Shown piece by piece: positions 837 to 51,309 of a DNA stretch of 64,000 bases. The position numbers were made by a program, and so were the translations under genes. The notes below the pieces were generated by a model that searched no databases, was not told the DNA's origin, and worked only from the letters and a program-made list of their open reading frames with translations. Location of the stretch: assembly GCA_964023275.1 (NCBI GenBank), contig OZ029914.1:12134341-12198340 (forward strand). Direction: 5' to 3'. Numbering within the stretch: position 1 is the first letter of the stretch; each line of letters starts with the position of its first letter. Origin of the DNA: Norana najaformis. Taxonomy: Eukaryota > Annelida > Clitellata > Crassiclitellata > Hormogastridae.

Positions 837-3800
837 TCAAACAAGTGTTATTAAATAGTGGCGCATCTGCCTTTTAAACAATTTCAAACTTGGCAACATA
901 CGATTGCTCAGTGGTAAAGCGTTCCAAATCGAAGGGCCAGTACATTTAATATTGAATAATCGAGTGTTGGTACGAGCAAAACTGGCATAATAATTACCGT
1001 GAATCCTGGTAAAATATGAGTGATGATCGATGATGTTGAAGTAGCCATCAAACTTCGATGGCAATAATTTATGTTGATATTGGTACATAAATACAGAGAT
1101 CTGAAACTTATTAATGGAATTAATTTTTAAAATATTTAGATTGGCAAAACAGGGCTCAATATCATTCACTTGGAAAGTTTTTGTAATTATCCTAAGAACA
1201 CGGCGCTGTAAAACAGATAAACATTTTATAAGCGAAGGATAATTAGAGGCCCATAAAAGGTTACAGTAGGATAAGTAAGGATAAATCAATGAATAATACA
1301 AATTAATTAATATCTGTTGGGGTAGGATATGACGAATACGTGACAATATACCAGAACATTTAGCAATTTTACTTGATATATGAGATATATGCTCTTTCCA
1401 CATTAAATGAGAGTCAATATAGACTCCCAAGAAATTTACATGAATTTACTTGAGTAATCTGTTGATTATCAATAAAAATATTAATAGCTGATTTACAAAG
1501 AACCTTCCGATGTGATCTAAATAATATAAAATTAGTCTTAAGTAAATTCAAGGATAGCCTATTAGCACGAAACCAGTCAGCAACTGATACAAGTTCGTTA
1601 TTGACAGACTCAATCAGAGCATCTAACGATTTATTAGATAAGAAAACATTCGTATCGTCGGCAAACAGTATAAAATGAAGTGACTTAGATGAGGTCGGAA
1701 GGTCATTTATGTACAACAGAAACAAAAGTGGGCCTAGAATAGAGCCTTGCGGAACTCCACAACGGATGGATCTGATGCTAGACAGGGCCCCATTACACAA
1801 GACTTGCTGATGCCTGTCATGGAGGTAGCTCTTAAACCAACAGAGTGGGAGTCCTCGTACTCCATAAAATTCAAGCTTCCTCATCAAGATAGCATGATCT
1901 ACAGTATCAAAAGCTTTTGCCAAGTCAAGAAAAATTCCAACAGAGAACAGATTGTCGTCAATAGCCTGGGAAATGTTATCGTGTAGATCCAAAAGCGCCA
2001 TTGAGGTAGATAGGCCCGTTTGGAATCCAAATTGGTTAGGATATATTATGTTCATTTTTTGGATATAGTTATAAAAGCGTTCGTACATCAATTTTTCAAA
2101 ATATTTTGAAAAAAAAGGAAGAATCGAAATAGGCCTATAGTTGCTGACATTATCTTTGGTTCCCGATTTAAAAATAGGTATTACCTTGGCAATTTTGATA
2201 CCAGTAGGAACCATCCCTGTGGCAAACGAGCAATTAATTATTTCAGCTAACGGTGACGCAATAATATGGATAGTAGGGCCAGCAATACATGGATCGACAC
2301 CATCTGGACCAGCACTATGTGTAATTCTTAGAGAACGGGAAATAGCGATGATTTCATCGGCTGAGGTTGGACAAAGACCAAATGACTGAGAGGGGGAATT
2401 CCTTAAAAAGGATTCATAAGAAGTTTTAGTTTTTGGAATGGCTTGCGCTAGTGACTGCCCAACACCAGTGAAGAACTCATTAAACTTATTAGAGATAGAA
2501 TTAGAGTCAGTATACGTACTTCCATCTATACTAAGCGCATCAACAGATTTAACCAGATCACCTGATCCGACCAGTGATCGCACAATACTCCAAGTTTTTT
2601 TAATGTTATTTTTACAAGCATTAAATTTATCGGCAAAATACTGTTGTTCAGCTTTAATTCTGATTTGTTTAAATTTATTTCTATAACTGATGAATTTGGA
2701 TTTATTAATATCAGAAGGATTTTTTAAATATTTAAGGTACAAATTAGATTTTTTCTTGCAGGATATGAACACAGCAGGTGTCATCCAAGGTTGCTTTATA
2801 CGATTATGCTTAGAATGGTTGACAGGGACCAGAGGGAGTGCCGTATCGTACGCATTCTTATACAGGTCAATTAACAATGTATAAGCTAGTGAAGGGTCAC
2901 GATTTTCACAAGCATTAGTTATGGGTGTCCAGTCAATCCTACCCAATATAGAATGGAAATGTTTGATCGACTCATCAGTAATTAGTCGCTTAGTATGCAA
3001 ATTATGACTGCTTACTATAACAGGGTTTAAGCAGCCCCAAGCAATGACAGGTAAATGGTCAGATATTTCACTTATAAGAATTGATGAATCGAATGAACTT
3101 TCGTAAACATTAGTGTAAATATTATCAATTAAAGTGGCAGAGGTATCAGTTATTCGTGTAGGTTTAAGTATTAATGGGATGAAATGGTAGGAGTAAAGGT
3201 TGTTGTAGAAATTTTGGGTATGAACATGATTCTCAATTTTGAAAAGATCAACATTAAAATCACCCCCAATAAATACTTTTTTCCCAGTAAGCGACAGATG
3301 AGATAACAATTGTTCCATTTCTACATTGAAAAGTTCAAGAGGTGACCCAGGCGGACGATAGACTACACCATATATACAGTCTTTTCCTTTGTCTTGAGGT
3401 ATAGTTATAAATATACACTCATAGGCTACATGGTCAGACAACAGTTTTCCTAAATCCAGTATTTTAAATTTGACACCTGTCTTTATAAGAAATGCTACAC
3501 CACCTCCTTTGCCAGAAGTTCTACATTTGGATACGAACTGATAACCTGGAATGCTTATGGTGGGCTCAGTAACAGAGTCGAGCCATGTTTCCGTTAAAGC
3601 TAACACGGTAACTGGAATCTGTGACAACAGAATCAGAATCTCGGGGATTTTGGGATAAAGGCTTCTTCAGTTTAAGTGCATAAATTTAAACGCGTCATAG
3701 GATAAGGAAGAAAATTTTGCAGCTAAAGAATCAACAGTGAGATATGAGCTGTTACAAGAACCGGCGGTAAAATAATTTTCATCAGGGTCCAAATCTCTGT

Positions 3801-4182
3801 TATTTAAAAGAGCACGCTTCTCTTCTCCAACAAATGGGTCAAATTTCAATTTGTCATATTGTTTAGATAAACTCAATGGAGAGTCACCCAAAGCAGAAAT
3901 AGCAACAAGGAAAAGAAATTTATCATTTATATGATTGAATGGAAAGATTGACTCAATGCACTGTAAACAGTACCAGGACTCAGTTTGAGCCTTAACCCTA
4001 TCTGGGTCCAAGTCAATACATCTTAAATGAACAGTATTGTTGCAGATTGCACATATTGCATATTGATGAGTAGATTTTATACGACTGCTACAAACAAAAC
4101 ATGATGGAGGAACTAGAGATTCAATCGTTGGTGACAACTGGCATCTGGTGAGGTTTGTACATGTAAATATGCTATTTAGCAT
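837..4182 (-). pseudogene. LINE ORF2: PHD finger-endonuclease-reverse transcriptase, two lesions
   Basis: The LINE replication polyprotein. Transcription runs from 4182 down. The first 171 codons hold a PHD-like zinc finger (CFVC, CAIC, HLRC, WYCLQC spacing). They end at a TGA (3667-3669) exactly where the endonuclease consensus HLNxRSL begins, and the same frame continues as RSLYPK. The APE-type endonuclease follows (LTETWLD, GGDFNVD, ISDHLPV), then the RT with LDLAKAFDTVDH, GVPQGSILGPLLF and the catalytic FADD. Near 1430 one extra base shifts the frame, and the C-terminal thumb region (LGVYIDSHLMW to WNALP) continues in 837-1430. Apart from these two lesions the frame is open. Endonuclease and RT perform target-primed reverse transcription; in related LINEs the PHD finger is a putative chromatin or nucleic-acid contact. 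Confidence 0.9.
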
Positions 4183-4269
4183 ATGTCACACACAGTTGCC
4201 GAAAAAAAGAATGAAGAGATAAGTACATACATATACACACAGTGCAAATACCTAGTACATATGTAGAGT

Positions 4270-5082
4270 TCAGGGCTTTTCTAAGTCATTCAATGTTGAG
4301 ATTCTTAGAGGTTTCTCTTCCGTGGAGTTTGATCGCATGACGTATACTATGCCGCCCATTGTCCAAGTTCTAGTGACCTTCTTCGCCTTGAGCATTGATC
4401 GGGCATGAGCAAAGATTTCTGCGTTTCTCTTTGTCAGATACTCATTGACGAAGACAGGATGCTCCGATGATTGACGGGTGCCTCGAAGTGACTTTCTGGC
4501 TCGATAAACGTCATCTCGTACCCGACGGGATGCGAAGCGGACAACGATGGGCCTGTGACTGTCCTTGTTTCCTCGCGAAATTCTGTAGGCAGAAGAAATG
4601 TCATGAGGCTGTAGTTGCAACCCGAGGCGTTCGTTACAATAGCCAATGACCGCACGTTCGGTCTGTAGGTAAGACTGTGTAGGTGGGAGACGAGGTGCAG
4701 CGCCAGGACCAGCCGCCTTTGCAGAGGCGTCAGCGTTTTCATGTCTACCAGAAACGATTTCGGAGAACGACGACTCAGGCAAGCCATGGATGAGTAAACA
4801 GTCCTGTCGAAGTTCATTTTCGACGGAATCCAAGCGCGCTTTTAGAGCGTTATTCTCGTCCGTTACAACGCGTAATTTCTCGTTTATCGGCCTACATTGT
4901 GCTTCAATCATTCCTGCAACCAGGTTTTGTACAGTTTGTTCAAACGCGGTAGTAAATTTCGTGAACATCTGTTCAATGGACGGTGACAGGCGGGCTGTGA
5001 GACGGGAAACTAAGGCGTCCACTACACGGTCGTCCGTAATTAGGTCAACAAGTTCGTCGACTTTCACGCCTTTTTTCGCCAT
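4270..5082 (-). CDS. LINE ORF1 protein (coiled-coil RNA-binding type)
   Basis: A 270-residue ORF with an ATG start lies 87 bp upstream of ORF2 on the same strand. Residues about 10-100 form a heptad-like helical region (QMFTKFTTAFEQ to LDSVENELRQD). This is followed by LLIHGLPES and a C-terminal basic domain with RPIVVRFASRR and KSLRG, as seen in L1-like and CR1 ORF1 proteins that coat the element RNA. The insert between them (about 115-140) is Ala/Pro-rich. The frame is intact, unlike ORF2. Identification is from architecture, not a database match. Confidence 0.8.
   Translation of the reverse strand: MAKKGVKVDELVDLITDDRVVDALVSRLTARLSPSIEQMFTKFTTAFEQTVQNLVAGMIEAQCRPINEKLRVVTDENNALKARLDSVENELRQDCLLIHGLPESSFSEIVSGRHENADASAKAAGPGAAPRLPPTQSYLQTERAVIGYCNERLGLQLQPHDISSAYRISRGNKDSHRPIVVRFASRRVRDDVYRARKSLRGTRQSSEHPVFVNEYLTKRNAEIFAHARSMLKAKKVTRTWTMGGIVYVMRSNSTEEKPLRISTLNDLEKP

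Positions 5083-17379: not shown

Positions 17380-17406
<27 letters not shown>
16900..17406 (+). repeat. GC-richer remnant ending in (TAA)n
   Basis: About 16950-17380 is richer in GC than its surroundings. On + it has an acidic frame (EAGDGDDEDEGVGG) broken by stops. It ends in eight TAA triplets, which looks like a retroposon 3' tail. Transposon copy 1 inserted into that tail. The family is not recognised. Confidence 0.35.
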
Positions 17407-17410
<4 letters not shown>

Positions 17411-17518
17411 GGTCAACATAGAAATCGTTACTGACTGGAAAAGGCCCTAATGTGTACCATCTTGGTGTGCTGAACACGAATATAACCATAAAAATTTTTT
17501 ATTGGCTCTCGTTTTGAA
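17407..17518 (+). repeat. Left terminal inverted repeat, copy 1
   Basis: About 112 bp. It pairs with 19637-19758 through three conserved islands: the 12-base tip, the TGTGCTGAACACGAATAT core and the ATTGGCTCT block. The spacer sequence between the islands is not conserved. Confidence 0.85.
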
Positions 17519-17716
17519 AATATTTCATATAGTTCATTTTTTATGTTTCACCATGTAAATTTATGCAGTAGGACTGCGACAATATCCTAAATAAGTCTAG
17601 AATGATGTAATATTCCACCTCATTGCATAATCCCATCATGGACACATCATGCACAGTTGATTACGTCATTTTCTGATGCAATGTAAAACTACAGCCAGTC
17701 GGCTGCTGACGTAAGA

Positions 17717-17741
17717 TGACGTCAGCAGTGTACTATATAAA
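17717..17741 (+). promoter_or_regulatory. Transposon promoter: TGACGTCA plus TATATAAA
   Basis: A perfect CRE (TGACGTCA, 17717-17724) followed by GC and a TATA box (17734-17741), 116 bp before the ORF. The same pair, TGAMGTCAGC then TATATAA, lies in front of the ORF in the other two copies even though their surrounding non-coding sequence has diverged. That conservation argues that this is the element's own promoter, possibly responsive to CREB/ATF factors. Confidence 0.75.
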
Positions 17742-17856
17742 GCGAGTCGGAACGGTTGAGCATTTACAATATTACAGACTTTGTGCGAGACAGTTTAAGT
17801 TACTGTTTTATAAAACTATTATTACTTTATCCATTTAGATACAATACAGAACAGTA

Positions 17857-19554
17857 ATGTCTCGGAAGTGCGTAAATACTGTGGACAACTTTTGTTACAT
17901 TTGTGGGGAAGTGACATTTGCCAACCATCGGAAAAGTATCACTTATCAAGTCAAGAAGGCATATCATGCTTACTTCGAATGCAAGGTTGGTGACCAAGAC
18001 AAGCCATGGGCCCCGCATATATGCTGTGCTACATGTACAACACAGCTTTCACAGTGGTTGAATGGCAAAAGACCATCAATGCCGTTTGCAGTTCCCATGG
18101 TGTGGAGAGAGCAAAGCAACCACGTAGATGACTGTTACTTCTGCTTGGTTCCTTCTCTTTCCGGTGGAATAACGAAGCAAAAGAAGTCGACAATAGTCTA
18201 CCCAAACATTCCGTCAGCATTGAGACCAGTTCCACATGGTGATGGACTTCCTATTCCAGAACCTCCAGCAGAATATATTTTCCTTGATTCATCTGATGAG
18301 GACAAGGGTGAGCCGACATGTTCTTCTCCTGGTCCGTCAGCGTGCAGTGATCCCGATTTTCACTGTGGTGCATCATCAACCCCACACAGAATAACACAGG
18401 AAGAACTAAATGACCTTGTTCGTGATTTGGACTTATCCAAAAACAAGGCAGAATCTCTAGGATCAAGACTCCAACAATGGAATCTTCTAGAAGAAGATGT
18501 CACAATTACTTCATATAGAAAGCGCCATCAGCAGTTGGAACCTTTCTTTATGAAGGAAGGTAATCTGGTATTCTGTTCCAATACTGACGACCTCATGAAT
18601 GCCTTACAGATCACTCATGACCCACAAGAATGGAGACTCTTTGTAGACTCTTCAACACTGAGTCTTAAGGCTGTGCTTTTGCACAATGGAAACCGTCTTC
18701 CATCTATACCATTAGCGCATGCTGTCCACATGAAAGAGACATACGATAACCTAAAACAGCTACTGCATTCCATTGACTATAACAGGCACAAATGGCACCT
18801 GTGTGGTGATTTGAAGGTAGTTGCCATTTTAATGGGACTGCAGCAAGGATATACAAAATATATGTGTTTCTTGTGTGAGTGGGATAGCCGAGCAAGAGAG
18901 TTGCACTACGTGCGGAAGGAATGGACTCCCAGACAAAACATGGCAGTTGCACAGAAGAATATCCAGCACCCAGCTCTGGTCGAGGCTCACAAAATCCTAC
19001 TACCACCCCTTCACATCAAACTAGGTTTGGTGAAGAACTTCGTGAAAGCCATGGACCGCACTTCGCCAGCTTTCCGATACCTGCATGAAAAATTCCCTCG
19101 ACTCAGCGAAGCAAAGATTAAAGAGGGAGTTTTTGTGGGTCCTCAGATTAGAGAACTCTTCAAAGATGACCGCTTCAACAACTTGCTGGAGGGTGATGCG
19201 AAACAAGCATGGAATGCTTTTCGTCTAGTGTCTACAGACTTTCTGGGGAATGTTAGGGCAGAAAACTACAAGGAACTAGTAGAAGACATGCTCAAGCAGT
19301 ACCAGAAATTTCGCTGCAATATGTCTCTGAAGATGCATTTCCTTCATTCCCATCTGGATTTCTTCCCTGACAACTGTGGTATGGTTAGTGACGAGCATGG
19401 CGAACGTTTTCATCAAGATATCGCAACAATGGAGCAAAGGTACCAGGGAAAATGGTCCACTACAATGTTGGCTGACTACTGCTGGACACTCCGCAGAGAT
19501 GCTCCCGAACAGCTGTACAAGAGACAGCAAAAAAATCTAAGAACTAGTCTATGA
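17857..19554 (+). CDS. Putative DDE transposase of the CACTGG family (565 aa)
   Basis: The sole protein of the element. Residues 1-100 form a Cys-rich module (C5, C13, C16, C56, C57, C60, H89, C93, C96; FCYICGE, PFAVPMVWRE, DDCYFC), probably zinc-binding and DNA-recognising. An acidic linker (145-175) follows, then a helical region with LNDLVRDLDLSKNKAE. The candidate RNase H-like core has D264 (RLFVDSS), D318 (CGDLK), CFLC at 337-340, LPPLHIKLGL at 382-391, HFLHSH at 494-499 and an acidic pair E513/E516 in SDEHGERFHQD. D, D, then a C(2)C...H(4)H insert, then E is the layout reported for CMC, hAT, Transib and related transposases. No introns. The frame is intact with ATG in good context (GTAATGT). 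Function is inferred; no catalytic residue has been tested. Confidence 0.8.
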   Translation: MSRKCVNTVDNFCYICGEVTFANHRKSITYQVKKAYHAYFECKVGDQDKPWAPHICCATCTTQLSQWLNGKRPSMPFAVPMVWREQSNHVDDCYFCLVPSLSGGITKQKKSTIVYPNIPSALRPVPHGDGLPIPEPPAEYIFLDSSDEDKGEPTCSSPGPSACSDPDFHCGASSTPHRITQEELNDLVRDLDLSKNKAESLGSRLQQWNLLEEDVTITSYRKRHQQLEPFFMKEGNLVFCSNTDDLMNALQITHDPQEWRLFVDSSTLSLKAVLLHNGNRLPSIPLAHAVHMKETYDNLKQLLHSIDYNRHKWHLCGDLKVVAILMGLQQGYTKYMCFLCEWDSRARELHYVRKEWTPRQNMAVAQKNIQHPALVEAHKILLPPLHIKLGLVKNFVKAMDRTSPAFRYLHEKFPRLSEAKIKEGVFVGPQIRELFKDDRFNNLLEGDAKQAWNAFRLVSTDFLGNVRAENYKELVEDMLKQYQKFRCNMSLKMHFLHSHLDFFPDNCGMVSDEHGERFHQDIATMEQRYQGKWSTTMLADYCWTLRRDAPEQLYKRQQKNLRTSL

Positions 19555-19636
19555 CCTGGTTTTTACAAATATTAACTGTGAGTGTATCACTATTGGCATG
19601 CATTGTGCGACATAAAATTACTTCATTTCAGATTAC

Positions 19637-19758
19637 AAAAAAACTAGAGCCAATTCGGCATTTTCACTGTCATATTCGTGTTCAGCACATACAAATTGAT
19701 AAGAACTGACTAATTTCATTTTAGTAACATGACTTTTGTAAACATTTGTTGTCCAGTG
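19637..19758 (-). repeat. Right terminal inverted repeat, copy 1
   Basis: Inverted partner of 17407-17518, ending TTGTCCAGTG. It is followed by AAATAATAATAA, the continuation of the interrupted TAA tract. Confidence 0.85.
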
Positions 19759-22274: not shown

Positions 22275-24007
22275 AATCGCAAGGCACCAACAGCTGACAA
22301 ACCAGACGAGGAGATCGAACAGTTCTACAGGGAGATGAATCAGGTCGTTGCAGAGGTGCCCAGACAGAACTTGCTTGTGATCACAGGAGATTTTAATGCA
22401 CGAGTCGGAGAAGGGGCAGAAGAAACTGATGTCCTTGGAAGATACGGTCATGGCGAAAGAAACGACAGGGGTCAGGCATTGGTGGACTTTTGTGCAGAAG
22501 ACAAGTTGGTCATTGCCAACACACTTTTTCGGCTGCACAGTCGACACCGATATACTTGGAAGAGTCCAGACGGAGTAACCAGAACTCAGATTGACTACAT
22601 ACTGATCAACAAACAGTGGAAACAGACGATCAACAATGCACGCACATGCCTCAGTGCAGACTGTGATTCTGACCATAATCTGGTAATACTGACTATGAAA
22701 TTAAGATTCAAAAAGAAGCGAGTTACTACACCTCTCCTTCTGGACCTCGAAAAGCTTAAAACCGATCAGGTTGGGCGGCAGTTCCAACTGGAGGTAACAA
22801 ACAGGTTTGAGGAATTGGGTAGAGTCGACGAGCCGCGTACACCTGATGAACTGTGGCAGCAACTGAAAGACATCACTCTGGAAGCTGCTAGGGAGACAAT
22901 ACGAAAGAGTCACAATAAGCGCAAGAATTGGATGTCCAATGACACCTTCGAACTGATACAGAAAAAACGTGAGGCAAAGGCAAGGTCAGCGGACGAATAC
23001 AGAAAGCTGATTGGTGAAGTGCAGAGGATGCTACGAAAGGACAAGCAGGCAGAAATGGAGACTTTGTGCAGTGAGTTGGAGGAAAATACGAGGAAGGGTA
23101 ATAGTAGTCCAGTTTTCCAAACGGTAAAAAACCTCACTAAGTATTTCCTACCCCGCACAACAGCCATCAAAGGCAGGGACGATAGGAAACTTGTAGAACC
23201 AGAGAAGGTGAATCAGAGATGGAAGGAGTACTGCAAAGAACTGTACGACGGAGATGATCAGAACATAGAGATTGATGTACACGAAAGGGAACCTCCACCA
23301 CTGAAGGAAGAGATCAGACGAGCCATGCTCAAATCAGCCGCAAGAAAGACGCCAGGCCCAGATGGAATAGCCGTCGAACTGTTAAGGTTTGGCGGGGAGA
23401 TGACCTTGACCAGGTTGCATGAAATCTGTGTAAAGGTGTGGGAGACAGGAAAGTGGCCAGAGGAATGGACTCAGTCGGTGTTCATTCCTCTCCGCAAGAA
23501 AGGTGACTTGCTCCACTGCGAGAATACAGAACCATTGCATTGGTCTCACATGCGAGCAAAATTTTGCTGAGAGTCATATTGGAGCGGATACAAACTAAGC
23601 TCGAAGATGAGATCGCTCAGGAACACCCTGGATTTAGACCAAGAAGAGGCACAAAGGATCAGATTGTAAACCTCAGGATCATACTAGAGAAAGCAAGGGA
23701 AAGAAATCAACCACTGTACTTTTGTTTCATCGACTTCACAAAGGCTTTCGATATGGTACAACACGATCAACTTTGGCTAACTATGCTCGAGATGGGTTTC
23801 CCAACTCATCTGGTTCAACTTTTGCAAAACCTGTATAGACAGCAGCGCGCCGCCGTTAGGACAGACAATCTCGTGTCTGCATGGTTCAGTGTTAAAAAGG
23901 GATTCCGGCAAGGATGCAATCTTTCTCCGTGCCTGTTCAACATGCTGGCAGAACAAGTGATGCGAAAAGCACTGCAGGGATTTGCTGGAGGCTTCAGTTA
24001 CCTTTAG
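22275..24007 (+). pseudogene. RTE-type LINE fragment: endonuclease and reverse transcriptase
   Basis: Reads on + from APTADKPDEE through the APE-type endonuclease (VITGDFNARVG, TQIDYILINKQW, DCDSDHNLVI). A linker and the RT follow (ARKTPGPDGIAVELL, FIDFTKAFDMVQH, GFRQGCNLSPCLFN). The first third of the endonuclease is missing. A one-base shift near 23527-23545 moves the frame from 22335-23570 to 23540-24007, and the match stops before the catalytic YADD. The endonuclease and RT blocks are of the RTE/BovB kind. Loss of the 3' half, unusual for LINE insertion, puts its end directly against the satellite that hosts transposon copy 2. Confidence 0.85.
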
Positions 24008-24023
24008 CGGCCACAATGCATTA

Positions 24024-24140
24024 CACTGGATCACACGAAAAAATTTTTCGCCTGCTACTAGGCATATGTTATGTGTACTACACTAAGTCGAATCTGCTGA
24101 TTCCAAATCTGAAGTCAGATCTTGCGTAGCACGTCAGGAT
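24024..24140 (+). repeat. Left terminal inverted repeat, copy 2
   Basis: Pairs with 26335-26441. The tips are identical for 12 bases, and an inner block GCTGATTCCAAAT.TGAAG then TCAGA is shared almost base for base. TGCTGA is also present in copy 1 and GCTGATTC in copy 3 at a similar depth. Confidence 0.88.
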
Positions 24141-24372
24141 CTTAAGATATGCAGCATACATGCTAATAATTATGCAAACTCTTTACAGAACTAGTATTTC
24201 CTTATAACTGTGTAATTATGCAAACTCAGAGTATTCATAACAAGAAACAAAATGTTATTCTTTTATAACTTGAAATTAAAATATGTTTTAAAATGTCATA
24301 TAAATATATGTATGTTACTCAGATGAAAGCATACATTTCGAAATTTTGTCTCTAGCTTAACTCTATACGAGT

Positions 24373-26068
24373 TCAAAAGTGCTTTAGACACTTGCTCTTG
24401 CGCTTGTGAGTGACCGCTGTTGCCCGCTGCAGAAACCAGCAGTAATCGCCCATCATGTTGGAATTGCAGTGGCCCTGATATCTTGCTTCAAAGGTGGAGA
24501 TGTCTTGATGGAATCTCTCTCCATGCTCATCGCTTACATCACCCAAGTTTGGTGGGAAAAAATCCAGATGGGAATGTAAGAAATGTATTTTTAGTGACAT
24601 CCGGCAGCCGAGTTGCTTATATGCTGTTAGCATGTTGCTAACGAGTTCAGCATAGTTCTCAGCTCGGTGATTCCCAAGGAAGTTTTGCACCACCAACGTA
24701 CATGCATCCCAAGCGGCAAATTCCAGTGGGTTGAGCTTGGTTCTAAATACAGTATCACGCATTGGTTCGGGGATTTCTGGCCCAATAAAAATTCCAGCCT
24801 TCAGCTTAGCATCAGTTTTGACGGGTCCAAATTTATCTCTCAGATACTGGAAGCCTTGTCCAGTACGATCCATTGCCACTGCGAAATTACTCATGAGGCC
24901 CAGTTTAATGTGAAGTGGTGGTAAGTACACTTTCAATGGATCAACCAATGGTTCGTGTTGCACGTTGTGCCGACCAACAATGTGCTCAGATCTAGGAGGC
25001 CACAGTTTCACTTTGTAATGGTTGCTGTCATCACGACTGTTCCACAAGCACAAAAAGCACATATGTTTTGTGTACCCCAGCTGTAGGCCTAGAATAAGTG
25101 CTACCACTTTGAGGTCCGCACAGATGTTCCATTTGTGGTCTGAGTAGTTGATCACTTTCAAAATGAGTTTCATTGAATCATATGTCTCTTTGAGGCCTAC
25201 AGCGTGGGCTATAGGAACAGACGGCTTTTCGTTACCATTGTGCACCAACACAGCTTTCAAGCTCGCTTGAAAGCTGGAATCTATGAACAGTCTCCACTGA
25301 TCAGGAACGTATTCGCAACCTAAATTCAGCATGAGACCGTTCACGTCAGTACAGAAACAGATATATTTTCCAGTGGCTGTAATATGTAGCTAACTGTTTG
25401 TGACGATAACGGAAGTGTGATGTTGTGGTACCTTTTTGAAGCAAGTTCCACTCCCCTAGTCTGGAGGCTAACAGTTCAGATTTCTCCTTTGACAAAGATA
25501 GGTCCCTCACCAGATCATCTAACTCACCTTGCCTTATCAAATGCGGCCTACCCTCTTCCCAATCTTGATCACTGGATTCATAAAGAGTAACGTCATCTTC
25601 TGTATTACCATCAGAACTGTCCGTTTCATCAGCATCCGCAGCAGGCGGAAATGGTACTGGATTCTCTTCATCATGCGGCACTGGCTTTAGAGCGGACTCG
25701 CAATCAGGATAAACGATTTTAGACTTATTTTTCTTTGAAAATCCAGCAACTTTAGTCATGCAGAAATAACAGTCTGCATGATGATTTCTTGGCTCGCGCC
25801 ACACCATAGGCACAGCAAACGGCATTGAATTCCTTTTGCCATTCAGCCACTGTGTAAGCCCAGAGTAGCACACGGTGCAGCAGACATGAGGTGCCCAACT
25901 TTTATCCTCGTCTCCGATTTGACATCCAAAATAATACTTGTAAGCAATCATCACTCTCTTAGTTAACTTCTTGCGCTGGTCACAAAGAGTATATTTACCA
26001 CAAACATAGCAAAAATTGTCTGGATGGTTAACACAGCCTCGCCTATTCATTTCAAAATTAAATCTCAC
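24373..26068 (-). pseudogene. CACTGG-family transposase, copy 2, single frameshift
   Basis: Collinear with the copy-1 protein along its whole length. The first 240 residues (26068-25346) carry the Cys module (FCYVCGKYT, PHVCCTVC, MPFAVPMVWREP, ADCYFC) and the LDDLVRDLSLSKEK helix. The frame shifts by one base near 25380, and 25344-24373 continues with RLFIDSS, CADLKVV, MCFLCLWNSR, LPPLHIKLGL, HFLHSHLDFFP and SDEHGERFHQD. All candidate catalytic residues are retained. Upstream the ORF could start at either of two in-frame ATGs (26068 or 18 bases later). One indel is the only visible lesion, so the copy was lost recently or carries a sequencing error. Confidence 0.85.
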
Positions 26069-26122
26069 ACACTAGCTACAGCTATATAAGAAAACTTCAC
26101 CTTCGTTCTACGCAATCTCGCC

Positions 26123-26150
26123 TTATATACTGGTATTGATGCTGACGTCA
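26123..26150 (-). promoter_or_regulatory. Transposon promoter module, copy 2
   Basis: On the minus strand GCTGACGTCAGC (palindromic, containing the CRE TGACGTCA at 26143-26150) is followed after 11 bases by TATATAA (26123-26129), 55 bp before the ORF. Same arrangement as copies 1 and 3. Confidence 0.75.
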
Positions 26151-26334
26151 GCTCGCTGACATGCCCAATCATGTCTAGCGGCTGCTGCAGGCTTGCTGTT
26201 AGGAATATTTTAGGCGACACTTACAGGCATGCACGTATCACTGGCAGCAATCGTGGAGACACATACAACAGAATGTACAGACATAACCGAAAACGAGTCC
26301 TTACGTCATTACTTGAATGCATGCATAACTTAAA

Positions 26335-26441
26335 ATCTAGACGTGGTGGGCAGATTCTGACTTCATATTTGGAATCAGCACATTTGAATCAATATAAGGC
26401 ACATGTATAACTTTCAGTAGCAAAATCGTTGTGATCCAGTG
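26335..26441 (-). repeat. Right terminal inverted repeat, copy 2
   Basis: Inverted partner of 24024-24140, ending GTGATCCAGTG and followed by the TTA duplication. Confidence 0.88.
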
Positions 26442-27010
26442 TTATAAGCGTAGAATGCGATTGATAGGGTCATGCGTCCAAATGGGTATTTGTAACAAGT
26501 AGCCTGTGGGCATTTGGAGCAGACCTATGTACGTAGTTTGTTTTGATAATGGGTAAGAGATTTGAGTGCAAATAACTTTAAAATGGAGCCAGAACTTGGC
26601 GTATTTTGACGTTGCCCCAATTCATCATTAGGTCAAAACGGGGAGAGTTACTGCGTCAGAATGGGCGTTTGTACCAATTAGCCGAGCTATTTGGAGTAGA
26701 TCTGTATATGTAGTTTTTATGACATTGAGGGAAGGAGTACAAATATATTTACAGTGGAGGTCAGATTTTGGTATAAATCGCCGTTGACAGCCACAATGCA
26801 TTATAAAGGTAGAGTGCGGTGGGGTACTGCGTCCAAATGAGCGTTTATAACAGTTAACCTGTGAGTATTTAGAGTAGATCTATGTATGTGGTTTTGACGG
26901 TATGTACGGGATTTTCGGGAGAGGTACAGATAATTTTACAGTGGATGTCTGAACTTGTCGTATACTGGAGTAGACGGTCACATTGCGTTTTTGGGATCGA
27001 TTCCATTTTA
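26442..27010 (+). repeat. ~180-bp tandem repeat (satellite-like), interrupted by copy 2
   Basis: At least three diverged units, with starts near 26611, 26783 and 26971, preceded by one unit whose head (24004-24023) is cut off by the transposon and resumes at 26442. Units share TACTGCGTC, AATGNGCGTTTRTAAC, GGAG(C)AGA(T)CT and a GTTGACNGCCACAATGCATTA head. No ORF. The spacing varies from about 172 to 188 bp. Confidence 0.8.
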
Positions 27011-40442: not shown

Positions 40443-42915
40443 GCCGATTACTTAAAATTTAAATTAGAGCACTGTTACAGCTTCGAACATATTTGTCTTA
40501 CTATTCTAAGACAGCAAAACTTTCCACACACTATAAGGTATAGCTATACGATCCGCCTAGCATGTGAAATTCCTTCCCGCCTGGTCCTATAATACATTGC
40601 GCCAAATAGATTGTCAACGATATTACAATGCGCGCTGTCTTATTATTTCTACATTTATTAAGCGCCACTCTCTAATGACTAAGCATCAATCGATGGCGCT
40701 AAGCAAATTGTGAGCGAAGGACTTGCTCATGGTCCCTATGCAGTAAACGCCTTTGTGAGGCTCGATACCGTAATCTCCGCGTTACGTGCCTAGAGCTCTA
40801 ACCAATCAGCGGCCGTGCCCCTCACCGAATATATCGTCATCGTTTCATGTATGTTGCATAATGGGCCATCACCTTGGTAATAAATGCTTCCAAAATTTCA
40901 ATAAATAATAGCAACAACTCATAGACATCTTGAATATTCTTGATGTCTCTGCAACGACTCCGCCACTGCCGTATTCGGGTGGTGCCAGTGTCAAGTCTGG
41001 ATAACGGAGGAGGGGGACGCTAATCATCTTCATTATGACACAGCGTCGTTAAACAGCAACTACGAACATCACCAAGCAGTAATTAATGTTCCCCTGGACG
41101 CCTTTACCTGGGACAGTCTACGCTGATCACTGAACAGCATCTTCACCTTGGGTGGTCTATTTGGGTGGTTGCTGAACTTGTCCGCCCTCTTCTTTCCAGT
41201 GGACATTTACGTAGCGTGGCCGTAAAAGGCCTTAAAACTGCAAAGGCTAGGCCGTACTCATACAGAATATACAGTAAATATTGTCAACACCAAGTTCGTC
41301 TCAGTTGACACCCCTGTGGGGCGTTTAATGTTAACAGATTGCCTTCGCATAATGCGAACTCATCAGCACCCCACGCCTTGCAATCTCTGTGCAGGTCTTC
41401 ACTCAAAAATGAAACTGCTCTTTCACAGATCCTATCGTGATTCTTCTTCCCTTAGGCCTATCTCTCTGACCGCCCCAATTCCAATAGGCCTACCATCCAC
41501 CGTAGCCGTTTGACTGTCTGCTTGCCAGACTCATGGAGCGTAATCGTAATCTCGAGATTTCTACAGCGCCCAGCGAAAGCCAATTTGCGGGAACCAACTT
41601 ATTCACATGCGCTCAGTCAAAATAAAATTGATAGGCAGAAATGGCTCGGTTCCAGGTCAAGAGTCAGGCAGGCAGACAGTCGTACGGTTACGGTGGATTG
41701 TGTTTTAAAATTGGAGCGGGAAGAGATATAAGAAGAGGAAGAATCAGGATAGGATTTTGGGAAAAGTAATGATTTATTCACTTTTGAGTTAAAGATCTGC
41801 CCAGAAATTGCAAGAGGTGAAGTGTTGGTGAGTTCATATGATGGGTCAGATACTTGTCATAATTCTTGCGGGAGTTTATTTCAGAGGGACGGAGCAGATG
41901 TGGCTTTGGAGTAATTTCCAAATTTTAAGGATGAGGTTTCAAAGATGAATCTTTACCTGGAACCGATTTGACACTCTGCCATGTCGATTTTGTTTTGACT
42001 GAGCGCTTGTGAAAACACTGGTTCACCGCGACATGGCTTATGTTGGACAGTGTAGAAATGCCGTGTTTACGATTATGATTAGAGGCCTATGTTTAACCTC
42101 CTTCATCAGATATTCTTAGACGGAAAAACCACGAATAAACCATGGACAAACCCACGACGCATACACGCAATAGCTTTAGGTCTACAACATTGTGTTAGGA
42201 CAAAACTGTAAACAGATTTTTCGACAATAACTTTCGAATTTATCAAATATGTAAGTGCTCACGATTTCGTTTCATATTTTGTGTTATTTCGATACGTGTA
42301 TCCGCAGTTTTAAGTAGACGCAAATACAATTATATTGGCATATTTGAGCAACTCCGGCATCCTGTTTCATTTTCACGATAGAAGGCATAACCACATTGTA
42401 AAGAAAATGAACATAAAAATCACCTCCATCGCTTGAATCTACGCTTTTAAGAAGTTACGAGAGGCATGCAATATTGATGATCGGATACATGATTTTTTGA
42501 AAGTCGGAAAAGTAAATTTTCGAGAAACACGCTCAGATGCAGGGGCGTAGCAATAGATTGTGCAGGTTGTCCAAAGTACAAGGGCCCACGAAGCCAGGGG
42601 CCGCCCGGGCCCGCAAAGGGTCAAGGCCTGGTTACTTAATTACTTTAAGCAAAACAGCCAAAGTTCAGTTTACATAAGGACCCTTCGGAAGGATATCTAC
42701 GCCGCTGCTCAGAAGTCAGGTAGGCATGAAATGGGTCAAACTTACCTCTTTGCATATTTATAGGCCATTTCCCTGTTGTAATCGTAATCGAAATACCGAG
42801 ATTTCTACAGCCAAACGAAAGCCACGTCACGGGGACCAGCTTACTCACAGGCGCTCAGTCAAAACAAAATCGATAGGCAAAAGGGTTCGGCTCTAGGTCA
42901 AGATCCAAAAGTCAG
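40443..42915 (+). repeat. 2.4-kb repeat R, copy 1
   Basis: Matches a second copy that is split into 47594-47877 and 51475-53575. Parts include a tRNA-like or SINE-like stretch (CGATACCGTAATCTCCGCGTT; GGTTCGATCCCG in copy 2), a GTGGTGCCAGTG.CAAGTCTGGATAA block, and two GATTACG-tailed LINE 3' ends (41531-41960 and 42776-42915). This copy stops at 42915, where LTR-element RT sequence begins. Confidence 0.8.
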
Positions 42916-43643
42916 ATTGGTGACGCAAATGGAGATTCTGATGGTTCAATAATTTGATCTTCGATCATCTGCTCGATCTGTCTGTGCACCTGTTCACGCA
43001 AGCTCTCTGGAATTTTATAGAATTTTGGGGCAATGGGCTTGTCCGTGTTTACCCTGATCGTATGTTTCATCAGTTTCGTCCTGCCCAACCTCCCTATGAA
43101 TCTATCCTTAAACTCATTCAAAATGTCGTCCAGCTGCTCCTTCTGGTCTTTTGAAAGACCCTCGGCATTGTAGTGTAACTCTTCTGCTTTCTCTTCTTCA
43201 TCGTCCATGCATCCTAAGCTTTCGAATTGGTCTTCGCATGGTTCTGCAGTTAAGATGACATTTACCTGAGGAATGCTGGGGTCTGATTTCCGGGCATGCC
43301 ATAATTTTAACAGGTTTATGTGATAAATGTTTGGGCCTTTTTCTGTCATTATTTCGTAATTCACACTAGATAATTTTCTGCTCACTACGTAAGGTCCTTC
43401 CCACTTGGCCAATAATTTGTTCTCTGTGGAATGTCGTAAGAGTAACACTTCTTGTCCAGTTTCTAATGTTCGATCGGACGAATTCTTATCATAATACGCT
43501 TTTTCAGCCTGACGCGCTTTCTTAGCATTCTCAGTGGCCAGCTCCACACATTGCCTTAGATGATTTTGAGTCGTTGTTAAGTAGTCTACGACACTTCTTT
43601 TTGTTGCTATGGTGCTCAGCTTACCTGTCCATGTGTCCTGCAT
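42912..43643 (-). pseudogene. LTR element: integrase C-terminus joined to truncated RT start
   Basis: The frame opens in the integrase C-terminal region (ATKRSVVDYL, AYYDKNSSDRTLETGQEVLL) with a GPY/F-like module (LLAKWEGPYVVSRK, YHINLLKLW). After an acidic linker it goes directly into the Gypsy RT N-terminus (MKHTIRVNTDKPIAPKFYK, IIEPSESPFASPI). The reading frame is continuous through the INT-to-RT junction. It is cut at SPFASPI by repeat R, so the RT palm, RNase H and the 3' LTR are missing. Confidence 0.85.
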
Positions 43644-43683
43644 TACCTGTAACGGTCCTCTGACGTCGTGCGAATATAGAAGT

Positions 43684-45180
43684 TCAAACGCTGAGAAGCC
43701 GGTGACTGAAGATGGAACCTAGTAGCGGAAGAGCTCTCTCCCATGAACGCGGATCATCATCAATCACCTTCCTCAGCATTTCTCTTAGGACTCTTATCAT
43801 TCGCTCTGCGCTGCCTGCAGTCTCATGATGCTCTACTGTGGCAAACGCTGGAGATATCCCTAGCATGTCTTCCAGGCCTCTTATCAACTGGTTCTTGAAG
43901 TGAGTACCATTATCTGATTTGATTATCCGTGGAATTCCGGTCCGAGCAAACGTCTCGATTAATGCCTTGGCCACGCTTTTAGCAGTTATGTTAGAAAGTG
44001 GGATGAATTCTGGCCAGTGTGTTGTTTGTTCCACGATGATTAAAATGAATTTCTTACCCGATGATGACTTTTGGTTTATTGGCCCTAAGACGTCCATTAC
44101 GATGGTCTCGAAAGGCGTATCGATTACTGGCACTTCGACTAATGGCGCTCTATCAGCCTTCTTAATAGTAGCTGTCTTCTGGCAAATGGGACATGTTCTA
44201 ACATATCCCTGAATATCAACTGTCAATCCAGGCCAACAAAATGCTTTGCGTACGATGTTAGAAGTAGATCTAATTCCACGATGACCTGCCCAAAGAGAAT
44301 CATGCGCTAATTCGAGTGTCTTTGATCTATATTTCACGGGCAAAACAAGCTGCTTGTTCTCTCTCCCATTATCGTCATCACTTTGATCTGAACAACTCTG
44401 CCGAAACAACAGACCACCTATTATCAGATACCCGTTATCGCCAGAGCGGGCCCGTTTCCACCATTCTGATAATGTTGGATCCTGTTCTTGTGCTGTTTTG
44501 AATTCAGTGACTTCTTCGTTAATTAGGGTATTAATCGTTTCCTTTGAATTTTCCTCCGGGCTTTCGCTCTCACTAATGACGCTTTGCTGTGCGGTTTCGG
44601 ATCGCGCAGACGTCGTTAAGTTAATTACCTTATCTTCCTCACCTGAGATTCGTTTATCTTCCGCCTCAGAGCTATCACTTCCAGTGCCATATGTTTCCAC
44701 TTCGTGATCGTCACTAATTACCCCTACGTCGCTGGGCTCATCGGTCGCTTCGTCGTTTGCCGTGACAGCGCTAGGTGGCTTCCTCGGGTTTACGGTTTTA
44801 CTTTGATCCTTAATGTCGTAATTACGGATGCGGGTAGCTATACATGCTTGGGGTAAGCTAACGGGATCCCAATTACATGCACCCACCGGGTCGACCAAGT
44901 CTGGATTATTTACAAATAGATCATGGCCTATTAGCAGGTCTGTTTGAAGTCCAGGGACCACACCCGCTTTGATCGTTATCCTTCTGTCTGTACCAAAATG
45001 TGGCGAGGAAATTTCAATGTCTTGTGTTGAAATATATTTCACAAGCCCAAAAGCACACTGCACGGTTACTGGCTTCCCCTTCCTGGCAGATGAACTATCT
45101 TTTACAAGTTCTGAATTTACCAACGTAACCTGGGCTCCTGTATCCCTCAGGGCCTCGACAGAAATATTATTTACAAACAA
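43684..45180 (-). pseudogene. LTR element: aspartic protease and integrase
   Basis: About 500 residues. The retropepsin active site is ALRDTGAQVTLV near residue 10. An acidic spacer follows, then an H2C2 zinc finger (HRGIRS..., TCPICQK) and the integrase core with first Asp in VMDVLGP, second in KSDNGTHF and the Glu in AGSAERMIRV. The protease frame is open upstream of 45180 into the gag 3' end and is offset by one base from gag (-1), so frameshifted translation would be needed. A small deletion near 43717 breaks the frame before the integrase C-terminus, where a FAYRE-like block is expected. Confidence 0.85.
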
Positions 45181-45245
45181 AGGTACAACGAATCGTTTTT
45201 GGTAATCTACAATTTTGTCTAAGTTGGACTTTTGCTTAACGAATT

Positions 45246-46385
45246 TTACTTGGGCATTTCCCTGTCCTTGAGAATTGTTTTGTTAAACTTGCTGTTGTAG
45301 AAATGATTTTTTTGGTCCGTTCGATGATGGCCATTCCCAAAATGCATTGGTCTTGCAATTTGCTCTAGGTTTTTGTCCTGGGCCTTTTGTTCCGCCGTAT
45401 CGTGGTGTGTGGAATGGGTTTGTTTACTTTCCCACTGAATACCATTATGGTTTGCATTAAAAGGCCTTGGCTTATAACCCTGCTTTTGCTCGAGGTGGTT
45501 TACCTTCCTTCCCTCTTGCGTGCATTCATAGTGGAGATTGGCAAAGTCAGCCACTTCAGCAGCAGTTCGGGGCTTTCTCGCCTCCACAAAATATCGAGTA
45601 TCACTTGGCAAAGACTCTTTAAGTCTTTCCAAAATTACATCATCTTTAAGAGCATCAAAATTAGTAATATCCTTTGACTCTAAATAATATTGAAACACAT
45701 CACGCAACTGATCTAAAAACTGTGGGTATGACTGTTTGCCTGTTCTGTGCATGGATCTAAATTTATCCAGATAGAACTTTGCGTTCATCCTACATGCGCT
45801 CATCAATGACGATTTCGTTTGCCTGTAATCGGCACAGATTTCCATAGGCAATCTGTTGTAATGCATTCTAAGGGAGGAATTTAACAAAGATGGAAGAAGC
45901 CTAGCCCGTCGAGCTTCCTCAATACCATGCAAAAACGCAACCTTCTCGAAAGAATGGAAATAGGAAACCGGATCTTCAGATTCATGCATGTTGGGTAGTT
46001 TTGCATAAGCAGACATAGCAGTAGCATCTACATCAACTCTTGCGTTATTAGATTGCAACAGACCCAACTGTGCTTTCTCACACAGTAAAACGAGTTCTAA
46101 TTCCATCCTCTCTCTTTCAGCCTGCACTTTCTCTTTCTCAGCCTGCACTTTCTCTTTCTCAGCCTGCGTACGTTCTTTCTCAGCTTGAATCAGTTTCAGC
46201 CTCATCTGGCCTTCGCTGATACTAGCTTCGCCTGTCTCAACTTCTTCCACTCTATCTTCGCCTCCCTCTACATCTCCATTTCCCTTCAGCAATCGTATCA
46301 TTTCACGTTTATCTAAACCCTCTGGGTTGATATTTCTCCGTCTGCACTCTTCTTCCAGATCCTTCTTTTTCATTTTGTCAAACAT
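45246..46385 (-). CDS. LTR element gag-like protein
   Basis: 379 residues, ATG start. It opens with a SAP-like helix (KKKDLEEECRRRNINPEGL), then a strongly charged coiled coil of repeated QAEKEKVQAEKE units (about 75-100). The capsid-type region follows (YAKLPNMHESEDPVSYFHSF, FLDQLRDVFQYYLESKDI, LKESLPSDTRYFVEARK), of the sort found in many animal Gypsy gag proteins. No CCHC knuckle is evident at the C-terminus. The frame is intact. It packages the element RNA. Confidence 0.75.
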   Translation of the reverse strand: MFDKMKKKDLEEECRRRNINPEGLDKREMIRLLKGNGDVEGGEDRVEEVETGEASISEGQMRLKLIQAEKERTQAEKEKVQAEKEKVQAERERMELELVLLCEKAQLGLLQSNNARVDVDATAMSAYAKLPNMHESEDPVSYFHSFEKVAFLHGIEEARRARLLPSLLNSSLRMHYNRLPMEICADYRQTKSSLMSACRMNAKFYLDKFRSMHRTGKQSYPQFLDQLRDVFQYYLESKDITNFDALKDDVILERLKESLPSDTRYFVEARKPRTAAEVADFANLHYECTQEGRKVNHLEQKQGYKPRPFNANHNGIQWESKQTHSTHHDTAEQKAQDKNLEQIARPMHFGNGHHRTDQKNHFYNSKFNKTILKDREMPK

Positions 46386-47877: not shown

Positions 47878-47879
47878 AT

Positions 47880-48746: not shown

Positions 48747-50594
48747 CACTGGCCAACAGAAAAATTTTTTTTCTTGTTGCCTTCGGTTTTAGACCTGTTC
48801 TTGGGGTAATTTTGGGCGCTGATTCAGAAAATGTCATTGGATTGAGTGCATCAGGTCTAGTTTCTGAGATATCGTCGATTTTGTAAAGAAAACCCAGTCC
48901 ACTCTTTAAACGATGTCTTTGGCAAAACTAAAATGTCATAATAAGCTTTATTTATGGCTAATTATAATTCTTGCTGATTCATATAATGCCTACATCCTTA
49001 TAATGTAAAATCAGCATATCTTGCCGCGTGCTGAGATATTGCTGATTCAACGAAATAACTATTCCGTAGCCTACAGCTTACTCAGCACTAAATTCATGGC
49101 CTCATTTAGAATTTATTTGTGCTTATACAGCGTTTCATGGTTTCGAACTATGTAAATAGATTATGCTGAAGTCAGCATTTATAGCCTATATAAACCGCCT
49201 CCTGAAAGCTAGAGCAGCCGCAGTCGTCTTAGGGCATATTAAGAGTTGGTCGCAAGAACAATCTGTGAATGTGAACATTAAATAACTACATGTTCTTACT
49301 ATTTTTTAGGTTAGTCACTTAATTCCTCAGATGCGAACATCCTTAAGGTTATGGCTACTTCCAGACGGAGCTGCATTAACCATCCAGACATATTCTGCTA
49401 CATTTGTGGGGAATACACACTAGAAGCAAACAGGAAACCGATTTCAGAGTTTGTAAAAAGAGCATATGTAGGTTATTTTGGTGTCAAACTTGGAGATCAA
49501 GATAAGCAATGGGCTCCTCATACAGTATGCAAAACTTGTATTGAACAATTGCGCCACTGGACAACTGGAAAGAGAAGCTGCCTGAAATTTGGTGTACCGA
49601 TGGTTTGGAGGGAACAGATAAACCACTTCGACGACTGTTACTTTTGTATGGTTAATATCATAGGCATCAATCGAAATAATCGTCACAAGTTGTCTTACCC
49701 TGATATACCTTCAGCCAGGAGACCTGTTCCGCATTCGGATATTGTACCAGTTCCACCTTTTCGCGAACTACCTCAGCTCTCAGACGATGACACTTGCATG
49801 TCCAATATCGGACAAGATGACGAAAGTGAAGAAAGTGGGGGCAGTGACAGTGATTTTCAATCAACTTCACACAGTGAACGTTTTGACCAAAAAGAGTTGA
49901 GTGATCTGATCAGGGACTTAAATCTTTCCAAAGAGTCCTCTGAATTGCTTGCGTCCAGACTAAAGGAAAAGAATGCACTTCAGCCTGGAACGAAAATTAC
50001 AATTTATAGAAACAGAGAAAAGGATTTGCTGCCATTCTTTACCGAAGACAACAACCTAGTATTCTGTAATGATATCAGCAACTTATGGAAGAAAATTGGT
50101 CTGTCGGATTACAGCCCAGATGAGTGGCGTCTTTTTATCGACAGTTCAAAACGTAGTCTGAAATGTGTGCTTTTAAATAACGGCAACAAATTTGGTTCTA
50201 TTCCAATCGGTCACTCGACCAGGATGAAAGAAGAGTACAATGCCATCTCTTTAGTACTGGAAAAGATAAAATACAAAGAACATCAATGGGTAATTTGTGT
50301 AGACTTGAAGATGGTAAATTTCCTCCTTGGTCGAGAAAGTGGCTACACAAAGTATCCCTGCTTTTTGTGTCAGCTTTGGGACAGTAGAGCCAAGCATGAA
50401 CATTGGACAAGAAAAGATTGGCCTTCGAGGAAAGACATGGTGGTTGGAGCTCAAAATGTAATCAAGGAATCTTTGGTGGCACGAGATAGGATCATACTGC
50501 CACCACTACATATAAAGCTAGGCCTGATGAAAGAATTTGTCAGGGCTTTGAATAAAGAAGGTTCATGCTTCGAATACATAGTACACAAGTTACC
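48747..50594 (+). mobile_element. CACTGG DNA transposon, copy 3 (right end lost)
   Basis: Starts CACTGGCCAACAG after TATATAA, so the flanking triplet is again TAA. It has GCTGATTC about 100 bp in, as in copy 2, then the CRE/TATA promoter and the transposase ORF. The coding match stops near 50594, where LINE sequence resumes; there is no right inverted repeat. A ~230-bp stretch lies between the LINE break (48515) and the transposon start. Confidence 0.8.
49167..49194 (+). promoter_or_regulatory. Transposon promoter module, copy 3
   Basis: GCTGAAGTCAGC, one change from the palindromic CRE of copy 2, is followed after 10 bases by TATATAAA (49187-49194). The ORF begins 157 bp further on. Confidence 0.7.
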
Positions 50595-50598
50595 AGGA
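49351..50598 (+). pseudogene. CACTGG-family transposase, copy 3, C-terminus missing
   Basis: Open for about 415 codons and collinear with copy 1: FCYICGEYTL, FGVPMVWREQINHFDDCYFC, LSDLIRDLNLSKES, RLFIDSSKRSLK (first Asp), CVDLKMVNFLLG (second Asp), CFLCQLWDSR, LPPLHIKLGLM. After FEYIVHKLPGR the sequence becomes LINE-derived and the frame runs on without meaning to 50679. The HFLHSH and SDEHGERF blocks, and so the presumed catalytic Glu, are absent. The protein has drifted from both other copies, so it is a third subfamily, not a recent duplicate. Confidence 0.85.
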
Positions 50599-51309
50599 AG
50601 GGTTGTCCGCCTAATCCAGTGCTGCTGTCTGATGTCCATATTGCTCCGTCAACGTGCGTACGTGACCGCGGAGTTCTAGTTGACAACCACCTATCACTAT
50701 CCTCGCATATCAATCACTTGACCAGCGTCTGCTACTACCACATTCGTCAACTGCGTGCTGTTCGTCGCTCGCTTACTCAGGAGACTGCGCATGCCTTGGT
50801 GCGAGCTTTGGTTATGTGTCGACTTGATTACTGTAATGGTGTTCTAGCGGGTTTACCACGATACTTATACAACAAACTTCAATCTGTCTTGTGTACTGGC
50901 GCGCGCGACTCGTACTCCGTCTGCCAAGTTCAGCCAGTGTGTCAGATCTGATGAGGCAGCAATTACATTGACTGTCTTTTCCACAAGGAGTTGACTATAA
51001 ACTATCTATGATTGACTACAAATGCCAGCATGGACTGGCTCCATCCTATATATCCAGGTTTTACATTCCGGTTGCGACAGTTCCTGGTCGATCCCGATTA
51101 CGTTCTGCGCCAACCGAAATATCATAGTTTCAAAGATTTATAATGCATCTGGCTCCCGTGGATTTTTTTACTCTTGCCCCACAGTGTGGAATGCCTTACC
51201 AACTAGCATCAGAGATGACACTCTTCCAATGACAAGTTTTAAAAAGAACTTAAAACTGACATGTTTAATAGGTCTGCCTAGTTTCCTGTGCATTCCTATC
51301 GATCTATAA
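50595..51309 (+). pseudogene. Split LINE, part 2: RT C-terminal region
   Basis: CPPNPVLLSDVHIAPSTCVRD, then LSSHINHLTSVCYYHIRQLR, ALVMCRLDYCNGVLAGLPR and, after a frame change, RGFFYSCPTVWNALPTSIR. This is the thumb and tail of an L2/CR1-type ORF2. The 3' UTR ends in the (TTAATAA)n run at 51412-51471. The order and orientation agree with 47880-48515 as the first part. Confidence 0.8.

What the first reader, a model, noticed from the sequence alone, without database searches (positions are those of the whole stretch)
17407..19758. A DNA transposon family (CACTGG ends) encoding an apparently uncharacterised transposase-like protein
Three collinear but diverged single-ORF genes (17857-19554, 24373-26068, 49351-50598) each sit in a 2.35-2.4 kb unit starting CACTGG, and the two complete units have inverted termini. 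The protein has an N-terminal Cys module and a D...D...C(2)C...H(4)H...E series compatible with an RNase H-like DDE core. CAC ends, short target duplication and the C(2)C/H(4)H insert recall the CMC superfamily, but the N-terminal module and the SDEHGERFHQD block are not ones I can assign to a named CACTA, Mirage or Chapaev family. Proteins like this are easily left as 'uncharacterized' in gene sets; here the boundaries show they are mobile.
Basis: partly seen in the sequence, partly recalled or inferred. Interest (0 to 1): 0.92.

Follow-up and report, generated by a model that had tools for sequence, protein, structure and literature searches.

The report
Chapaev3-type cut-and-paste DNA transposon
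The window holds copies of three young, abundant jumping genes whose ends, target site and enzyme motifs match a known animal transposon group called Chapaev3, distantly tied to the enzyme that rearranges antibody genes.

Summary
The core observation is real. Element A (17407-19758, 2352 bp) is a mobile unit: all 40 scored genome copies, itself included, are at least 99% identical with the same ends; its left tip occurs 911 times and its right tip 847 times, reversed controls 0. Element B (24024-26441, minus) is complete but its gene is frameshifted. Element C (48747-50599) is a 3'-truncated copy of a third family with 1123 tips.

CAC/GTG tips, a TWA target duplication preferring A before and T after, one ORF of about 565 codons, and the D-D-C(2)C-LH-H(4)H-E series are the published marks of Chapaev3 (PMC4079192). 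The N-terminal Cys module fits, but is not proven to be, the Chapa zinc finger reported for Chapaev3 and RAG1 (PMC4411706).

Not shown: comparison with a Repbase Chapaev3 protein, a confident fold (mean pLDDT 47.9), activity. The RAG1 comparison was not significant, though motifs fall in register. 29 of 64 intact copies lack an exact duplication.

Verdict: new member of a known kind, recently active; modest interest.

The parts
17407..19758 (+). Element A, complete Chapaev3-type transposon, 2352 bp, CACTGG...CCAGTG
17404..17406 (+). TAA left of element A, inside a (TAA)n microsatellite; right side reads AAATAA, so the duplication is not readable in this copy
17407..17418 (+). Left terminal inverted repeat tip CACTGGTCAACA (11 of 12 match the right tip)
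17466..17515 (+). Inner left inverted repeat (50 bp, 80% to 19640-19689), contains GTGCTGA
17734..17740 (+). TATATAA, possible TATA box 5' of the ORF
   Evidence: position 328 of the element; function inferred
17857..19554 (+). Transposase ORF, 565 aa: N-terminal Cys module (C13/C16, C57/C60, C93/C96), D264, D318, C337/C340, L385-H386, H494/H499, E513/E516
19640..19689 (-). Inner right inverted repeat
19747..19758 (-). Right terminal inverted repeat tip CACTGGACAACA (read on the minus strand)
24024..26441 (-). Element B, complete 2418-bp Chapaev3-type unit, flanks ATAA/TAAT
25346..26068 (-). B transposase, N-terminal piece before the frameshift
24373..25344 (-). B transposase, C-terminal piece after the frameshift
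26790..26818 (-). Related unoccupied copy of B's target repeat (29 bp ungapped, 89.7%), with one TAA where B has two
48747..50599 (+). Element C, 3'-truncated copy; full genome copies 2625-2637 bp
49351..50598 (+). C transposase coding part (the ORF runs on to 50679 in unrelated DNA)

Best explanation
The three units are separate families of Chapaev3 (CMC/CMCT group) DNA transposons in a 608-Mb eukaryotic genome, most likely an animal (inferred). Shown: bounded units, inverted tips, TWA target preference and duplication, many near-identical copies, and protein-level conservation between families. Inferred: the transposase binds the two-part inverted ends (tip CACTGG plus the inner GCTGA repeat, probably through the N-terminal Chapa-type zinc module), cuts the element out with an RNase H-like DDE centre (D264, D318, E513 or E516) braced by a C(2)C/H(4)H zinc site as in RAG1 and Transib, and joins the ends to a TWA site with a 3-bp stagger that is filled in as the duplication.
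For: Tips: CACTGG/CCAGTG in all three families, with a second inner inverted repeat carrying GCTGA. Target: -4 A 50/71, -3 T 57/71, -2 A or T 70/71, -1 A 59/71; genome-wide, ATWA before 511 of 911 left tips and TWAT after 386 of 847 right tips, reversed controls 0. Exact 3-bp duplication in 35 of 64, 27 of the 35 TTA or TAA, 22 of the 35 with A before and T after. C: 5 of 6 full copies with exact TWA. B: TAA twice, against once in a related empty site. PMC4079192 gives TWA, A/T neighbours, CAC/GTG tips, C(2)C, LH, H(4)H, mostly one exon; Garfield_BM 2289 bp and 556 aa, Merrow_PM 2451 bp and 78+484 aa. Core: D318 to C337 is 19 residues and C(2)C follows, as RAG1 D708-C727-C730, and LH386 aligns with RAG1 ALH. 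Selection: pS 0.84-0.89 against pN 0.32-0.40 between families. Local AlphaFold: strand 259-266 (holds D264), strands 269-276 and 284-290, helix 296-305, strand 314-317 then D318, the order at the start of an RNase H fold, ten-residue pLDDT means 53-82 there.
Against: No Chapaev3 reference protein could be compared; membership rests on structural marks. hhalign to mouse RAG1: E 0.068, score 21.6, and 3 of 30 shuffled RAG1 sequences scored higher. AlphaFold poor overall (mean pLDDT 47.9, pTM 0.34); residues 277-281 and the stretches with C(2)C, LH, H(4)H and E are under 50; the fold search never ran. 29 of 64 intact copies lack the exact 3-bp duplication and 13 of 35 exact ones lack the A/T neighbours. 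The window copy shows no clean duplication. The Chapa domain is not demonstrated. No activity was tested.
Confidence: 0.92

Rival explanations
1. A separate, unnamed CMC lineage, sister to Chapaev3, that shares its ends and target choice.
For: No direct comparison with Repbase proteins was possible; no Pfam, NCBIfam or PDB match above threshold.
Against: The tested marks of Chapaev3 agree: TWA with a preference for A/T neighbours, size, one ORF, C(2)C, LH, H(4)H, N-terminal cysteine pairs.
Confidence: 0.06
2. A CACTA/EnSpm element of animals (3-bp duplication, CACTR tips; traits recalled).
For: C(2)C/H(3-4)H and CA..TG tips are shared by the wider group (PMC12730594, passages).
Against: TWA-preferring target, one ORF of 565 aa, and no CACTA transposase family hit in Pfam.
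Confidence: 0.02
3. A PIF/Harbinger element, which also duplicates TWA (recalled).
For: TWA target duplication.
Against: CAC rather than G-rich tips (recalled trait), no second ORF above 100 aa in the unit, no Harbinger-type Pfam match, and the C(2)C/LH/H(4)H series.
Confidence: 0.005
4. A host gene family or domesticated transposase rather than mobile elements.
For: Long intact ORF under protein-level constraint between families.
Against: 911 left, 847 right (A) and 1123 (C) exact tips; shared boundaries in copies found by whole-element search, not by tip (39 of 40 from base 1); different flanks except one pair, L034/L035; target duplications.
Confidence: 0.005

Closest known systems
Chapaev3 (Merrow, Garfield, Conan; Chapaev3-1_PM, Chapaev3-1_ET in Repbase)
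   Same: CAC/GTG tips, TWA duplication with A before and T after (here a preference), C(2)C, LH and H(4)H, similar size (2289-2455 bp and 556-562 aa for the full elements seen in the paper), mostly one exon, N-terminal Chapa zinc finger reported (PMC4079192, PMC4411706)
   Different: Direct protein identity not measured. Merrow and Garfield have two exons; A has one ORF. C is somewhat longer (2625 bp). Tip counts here (911, 1123) exceed the copy numbers in the part of table 1 that I saw (above 7 to above 254), counted by another method
Chapaev (sensu stricto)
   Same: CMC core, CAC tips, Chapa domain
   Different: Chapaev as a whole has 3- to 4-bp duplications, the 4-bp form belonging to Chapaev proper (recalled); two subgroups carry a RING finger after Chapa
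Transib / RAG1
   Same: D-D-C(2)C-H(4)H-E order; D to C spacing of 19 equals RAG1 D708-C727
   Different: Transib has a 5-bp duplication (recalled); sequence comparison with RAG1 not significant
CACTA/EnSpm and Mirage
   Same: C(2)C and H(3-4)H motifs, CAC-type tips (recalled)
   Different: Other target choice and gene organisation (recalled)

Membership tests
Chapaev3 | 5'-CAC...GTG-3' inverted termini | tested here: met
   A, B, C all CACTGG...CCAGTG
Chapaev3 | 3-bp TWA target duplication | tested here: met
   35 of 64 intact copies have an exact 3-bp duplication (shuffled mean 12.9), 27 of the 35 TTA or TAA; 29 of 64 have none; C 5 of 6; B with empty site
Chapaev3 | A immediately before and T immediately after the duplicated TWA | tested here: met
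   As a preference, not 'always' as in the paper: both in 22 of 35; ATWA before 511 of 911 left tips, TWAT after 386 of 847 right tips
Chapaev3 | C(2)C, LH and H(4)H motifs between second D and E | tested here: met
   C337/C340, L385-H386, H494/H499 in A; invariant in A2 (two A, two C rows) and present in B's piece
Chapaev3 | One ORF of about 550-570 aa in an element of about 2.3-2.5 kb | tested here: met
   A 565 aa/2352 bp; B 2418 bp; C 567 aa but 2625 bp, a little longer than the elements seen in the paper
Chapaev3 | N-terminal Chapa zinc finger | tested here: inconclusive
   Three conserved CxxC pairs; zf-AD hits below Pfam's cut-off in both C rows (L043 E 0.0022, residues 16-77; L046 E 0.009), none in the two A rows or in B; no Chapa model on hand
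Chapaev3 | Protein falls in the Chapaev3 clade of a transposase tree | not testable with these tools
   No Repbase protein on hand; viral, phage, plasmid and prokaryote collections gave no relative
CMC/Transib RNase H-like DDE transposase | RNase H fold holding D, D, E | tested here: inconclusive
   Local strand-strand-strand-helix-strand order with D264 and D318 in place, but mean pLDDT 47.9; fold search could not be run
PIF/Harbinger | Harbinger DDE family and second Myb-like gene (recalled) | tested here: not met
   No Harbinger-type Pfam match; the only other ORFs of 60 aa or more lying inside the unit are 61-100 aa, all on the opposite strand

The most novel reading that the evidence does not exclude
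The genome holds at least three Chapaev3 families, two of them with about a thousand exact tips, that spread very recently and keep intact transposase genes, so at least one is still moving and would give a biochemically accessible Chapaev3 system, a distant comparison point for RAG1 and the Chapa zinc finger. I know of no biochemical study of a Chapaev3 enzyme; the 20 titles listed of 54 show none, which is not proof of absence.
Probability: 0.4. Interest if true: 0.4.

Novelty: new member of a known kind. Interest (0 to 1): 0.2.

Why it matters
It shows that the protein is not a mystery family: it carries the marks of a Chapaev3 transposase, which the family libraries used here (Pfam, NCBIfam) do not name. 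That helps clean gene sets, and young, abundant, ORF-intact families are good material for studying how RAG1-related CMC enzymes cut and join DNA.

Tried and rejected
Relatives outside eukaryotes: none. Protein scans of viral contigs, plasmids and phages found nothing; alignment scans matched 54 viral and 27 prokaryote stretches, none a relative; motif patterns gave 0, 3 and 15 stretches, best tblastn E 0.21.

Extra bases between the right tip and a second TWA looked like a special junction (A, AA, AAA, TA), but 13 of 64 such cases against 11.9 expected (a fraction 0.402 of 2000 shuffles reach it) is chance.

Peptide motifs in full texts: 0 papers. RAG1 hhalign: not significant. AlphaFold: low confidence. 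Fold search not run: busy, pdb_via library absent. The window's exact right 18-mer gave 3 places; opening the one base at which this copy differs from most of 68 copies gave 847. The B-tip count did not complete.

Full report
What is there. Element A spans 17407-19758 (2352 bp) with one long ORF, 17857-19554, 565 aa; the only other ORFs of 60 aa or more that lie inside it have 61-100 aa on the opposite strand. The window lies in a 608-Mb genome of 17 contigs. Of 1156 first-look candidates the tool scored 40; these, the window copy included, are 99-100% identical, 39 of 40 start at base 1 and 40 of 40 end at 2350-2352. The exact left tip occurs in 911 places, the right tip (with one base left open) in 847, reversed patterns in none. 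In 40 of the 911 places, chosen by hand on contig C1, 40 of 40 carry element sequence after the tip and 33 of 40 reach within 5 bp of the right end. Flanks differ from copy to copy, except one pair, L034 and L035, that shares its left flank and was not removed from the counts.

Target site. Eighty copies were examined: the 40 and the 40. In 65 the alignment starts at the left tip and the right tip reads CCAGTG; leaving out the window copy, which sits in a (TAA)n run, 35 of 64 have the same 3 bases on both sides. Shuffling left against right flanks gives 12.9 on average, and 0 of 2000 shuffles reach 35. Of the 35, 17 are TTA and 10 TAA, and 22 have A before and T after. Before the left tip the bases run A (50/71), T (57/71), A or T (70/71), A (59/71). 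Genome-wide, ATWA precedes 511 of 911 left tips and TWAT follows 386 of 847 right tips. The 29 of 64 without an exact duplication are not explained.

The other two. B is a complete 2418-bp unit at 24024-26441 on the minus strand with ATAA/TAAT flanks; 30 of the 40 scored genome copies (670 candidates, window copy included) span 1-2418, the others of these at 96-98% identity. A related repeat nearby (26790-26818) holds the same site with a single TAA, so the duplication can be read directly. B's gene is frameshifted. C starts at 48747 and is cut at 50599; 39 other copies match its part 48900-50599 at 99% (40 scored of 1756 candidates). Of seven of these fetched, six have both ends, 2625-2637 bp, and 5 of the 6 have exact TWA duplications; 5 of the 7 keep an ORF of 567-568 aa. 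C's tip occurs 1123 times, reversed control 0. The ends of all three share a two-part design: the CACTGG tip and an inner inverted repeat with GCTGA.

Age and selection. 68 full copies of A are 99.42% identical on average (minimum 98.59%); an ORF of 560 aa or more survives in 36 of 38 best-scoring copies, a set picked for closeness, and in 8 of 29 tip-sampled ones. Between families synonymous sites are saturated (pS 0.84-0.89) while pN is 0.32-0.40, so the protein has been under selection.

The protein. No Pfam, NCBIfam or PDB match passes a threshold. The series D264, D318, C337/C340, L385-H386, H494/H499, E513/E516 is invariant between the A and C rows of A2 and present in B's piece. D318 to C337 is 19 residues, the same as RAG1 D708 to C727, and hhalign puts D318, the C(2)C and the LH on their RAG1 counterparts; but the score is not significant (E 0.068; 3 of 30 shuffled RAG1 sequences score higher). 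AlphaFold from four window rows is poor overall (mean pLDDT 47.9), yet between 259 and 318 it gives strand-strand-strand-helix-strand with D264 in the first strand and D318 just after the last, the order of an RNase H core. The fold search could not be run.

Name. PMC4079192 (passages and section 14 seen) describes Chapaev3: CAC/GTG tips, TWA duplications between A and T, C(2)C, LH and H(4)H, mostly one exon, full elements of 2289-2455 bp and 556-562 aa in the part of its table that I saw. PMC4411706 (passages and section 6) reports a complex N-terminal zinc finger, Chapa, in Chapaev and Chapaev3, and as the N-terminal part of RAG1. A, B and C agree with the marks that could be tested, the A/T neighbours as a preference. 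The Chapa domain could only be matched by its cysteine pairs and sub-threshold zf-AD hits in C. So the finding is best read as a set of Chapaev3 families. Whether these exact families are already in Repbase was not testable.

Mechanism. Shown: mobility, ends, target choice, duplication. Inferred from family knowledge: cut-and-paste by a zinc-braced RNase H-like DDE centre with 3-bp staggered joining. Whether flanks are hairpinned, as RAG1 does to coding ends (recalled), is not known from these data.

Noticed in passing
window 837-5082, minus: LINE-like element: reverse transcriptase and endonuclease ORF (737 aa), a separate PHD-finger ORF, and a 270-aa ORF without a Pfam match that could be ORF1.
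   Followed up: partly
window 42912-46385, minus: Gypsy-type retroelement pieces with integrase and protease domains and an ORF with a SCAN domain match, gag-like by position; described only.
   Followed up: partly
window 22335-24007 and 47841-48398, plus: Two more non-LTR retrotransposon pieces, beside element B (endonuclease match just under Pfam's cut-off) and upstream of element C (reverse transcriptase).
   Followed up: no
L034 and L035 (G000:C10 near 7.18-7.20 Mb): Two inverted copies of element A share their left flank but not the right one, as after a duplication or rearrangement at the element.
   Followed up: no
L014, L015, L032, L052 right ends: Right tip reads CCAGTA instead of CCAGTG in four of 71 copies (two more end CCAGTT and CCAGAT), with a TTA or TAA at the tip or within two bases of it; cause unknown.
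   Followed up: partly
window 19743: The window copy of A differs from most of 68 full copies at a base 16 from its right end and is about 1% apart from the others on average: a diverged copy, not a typical one.
   Followed up: partly
window 26441-26900 and near 24023, minus: A host repeat with TGCATTGTGG seen by eye on the right flank of B and again near 26800 supplies the empty site; Tandem Repeats Finder lists no array there.
   Followed up: partly
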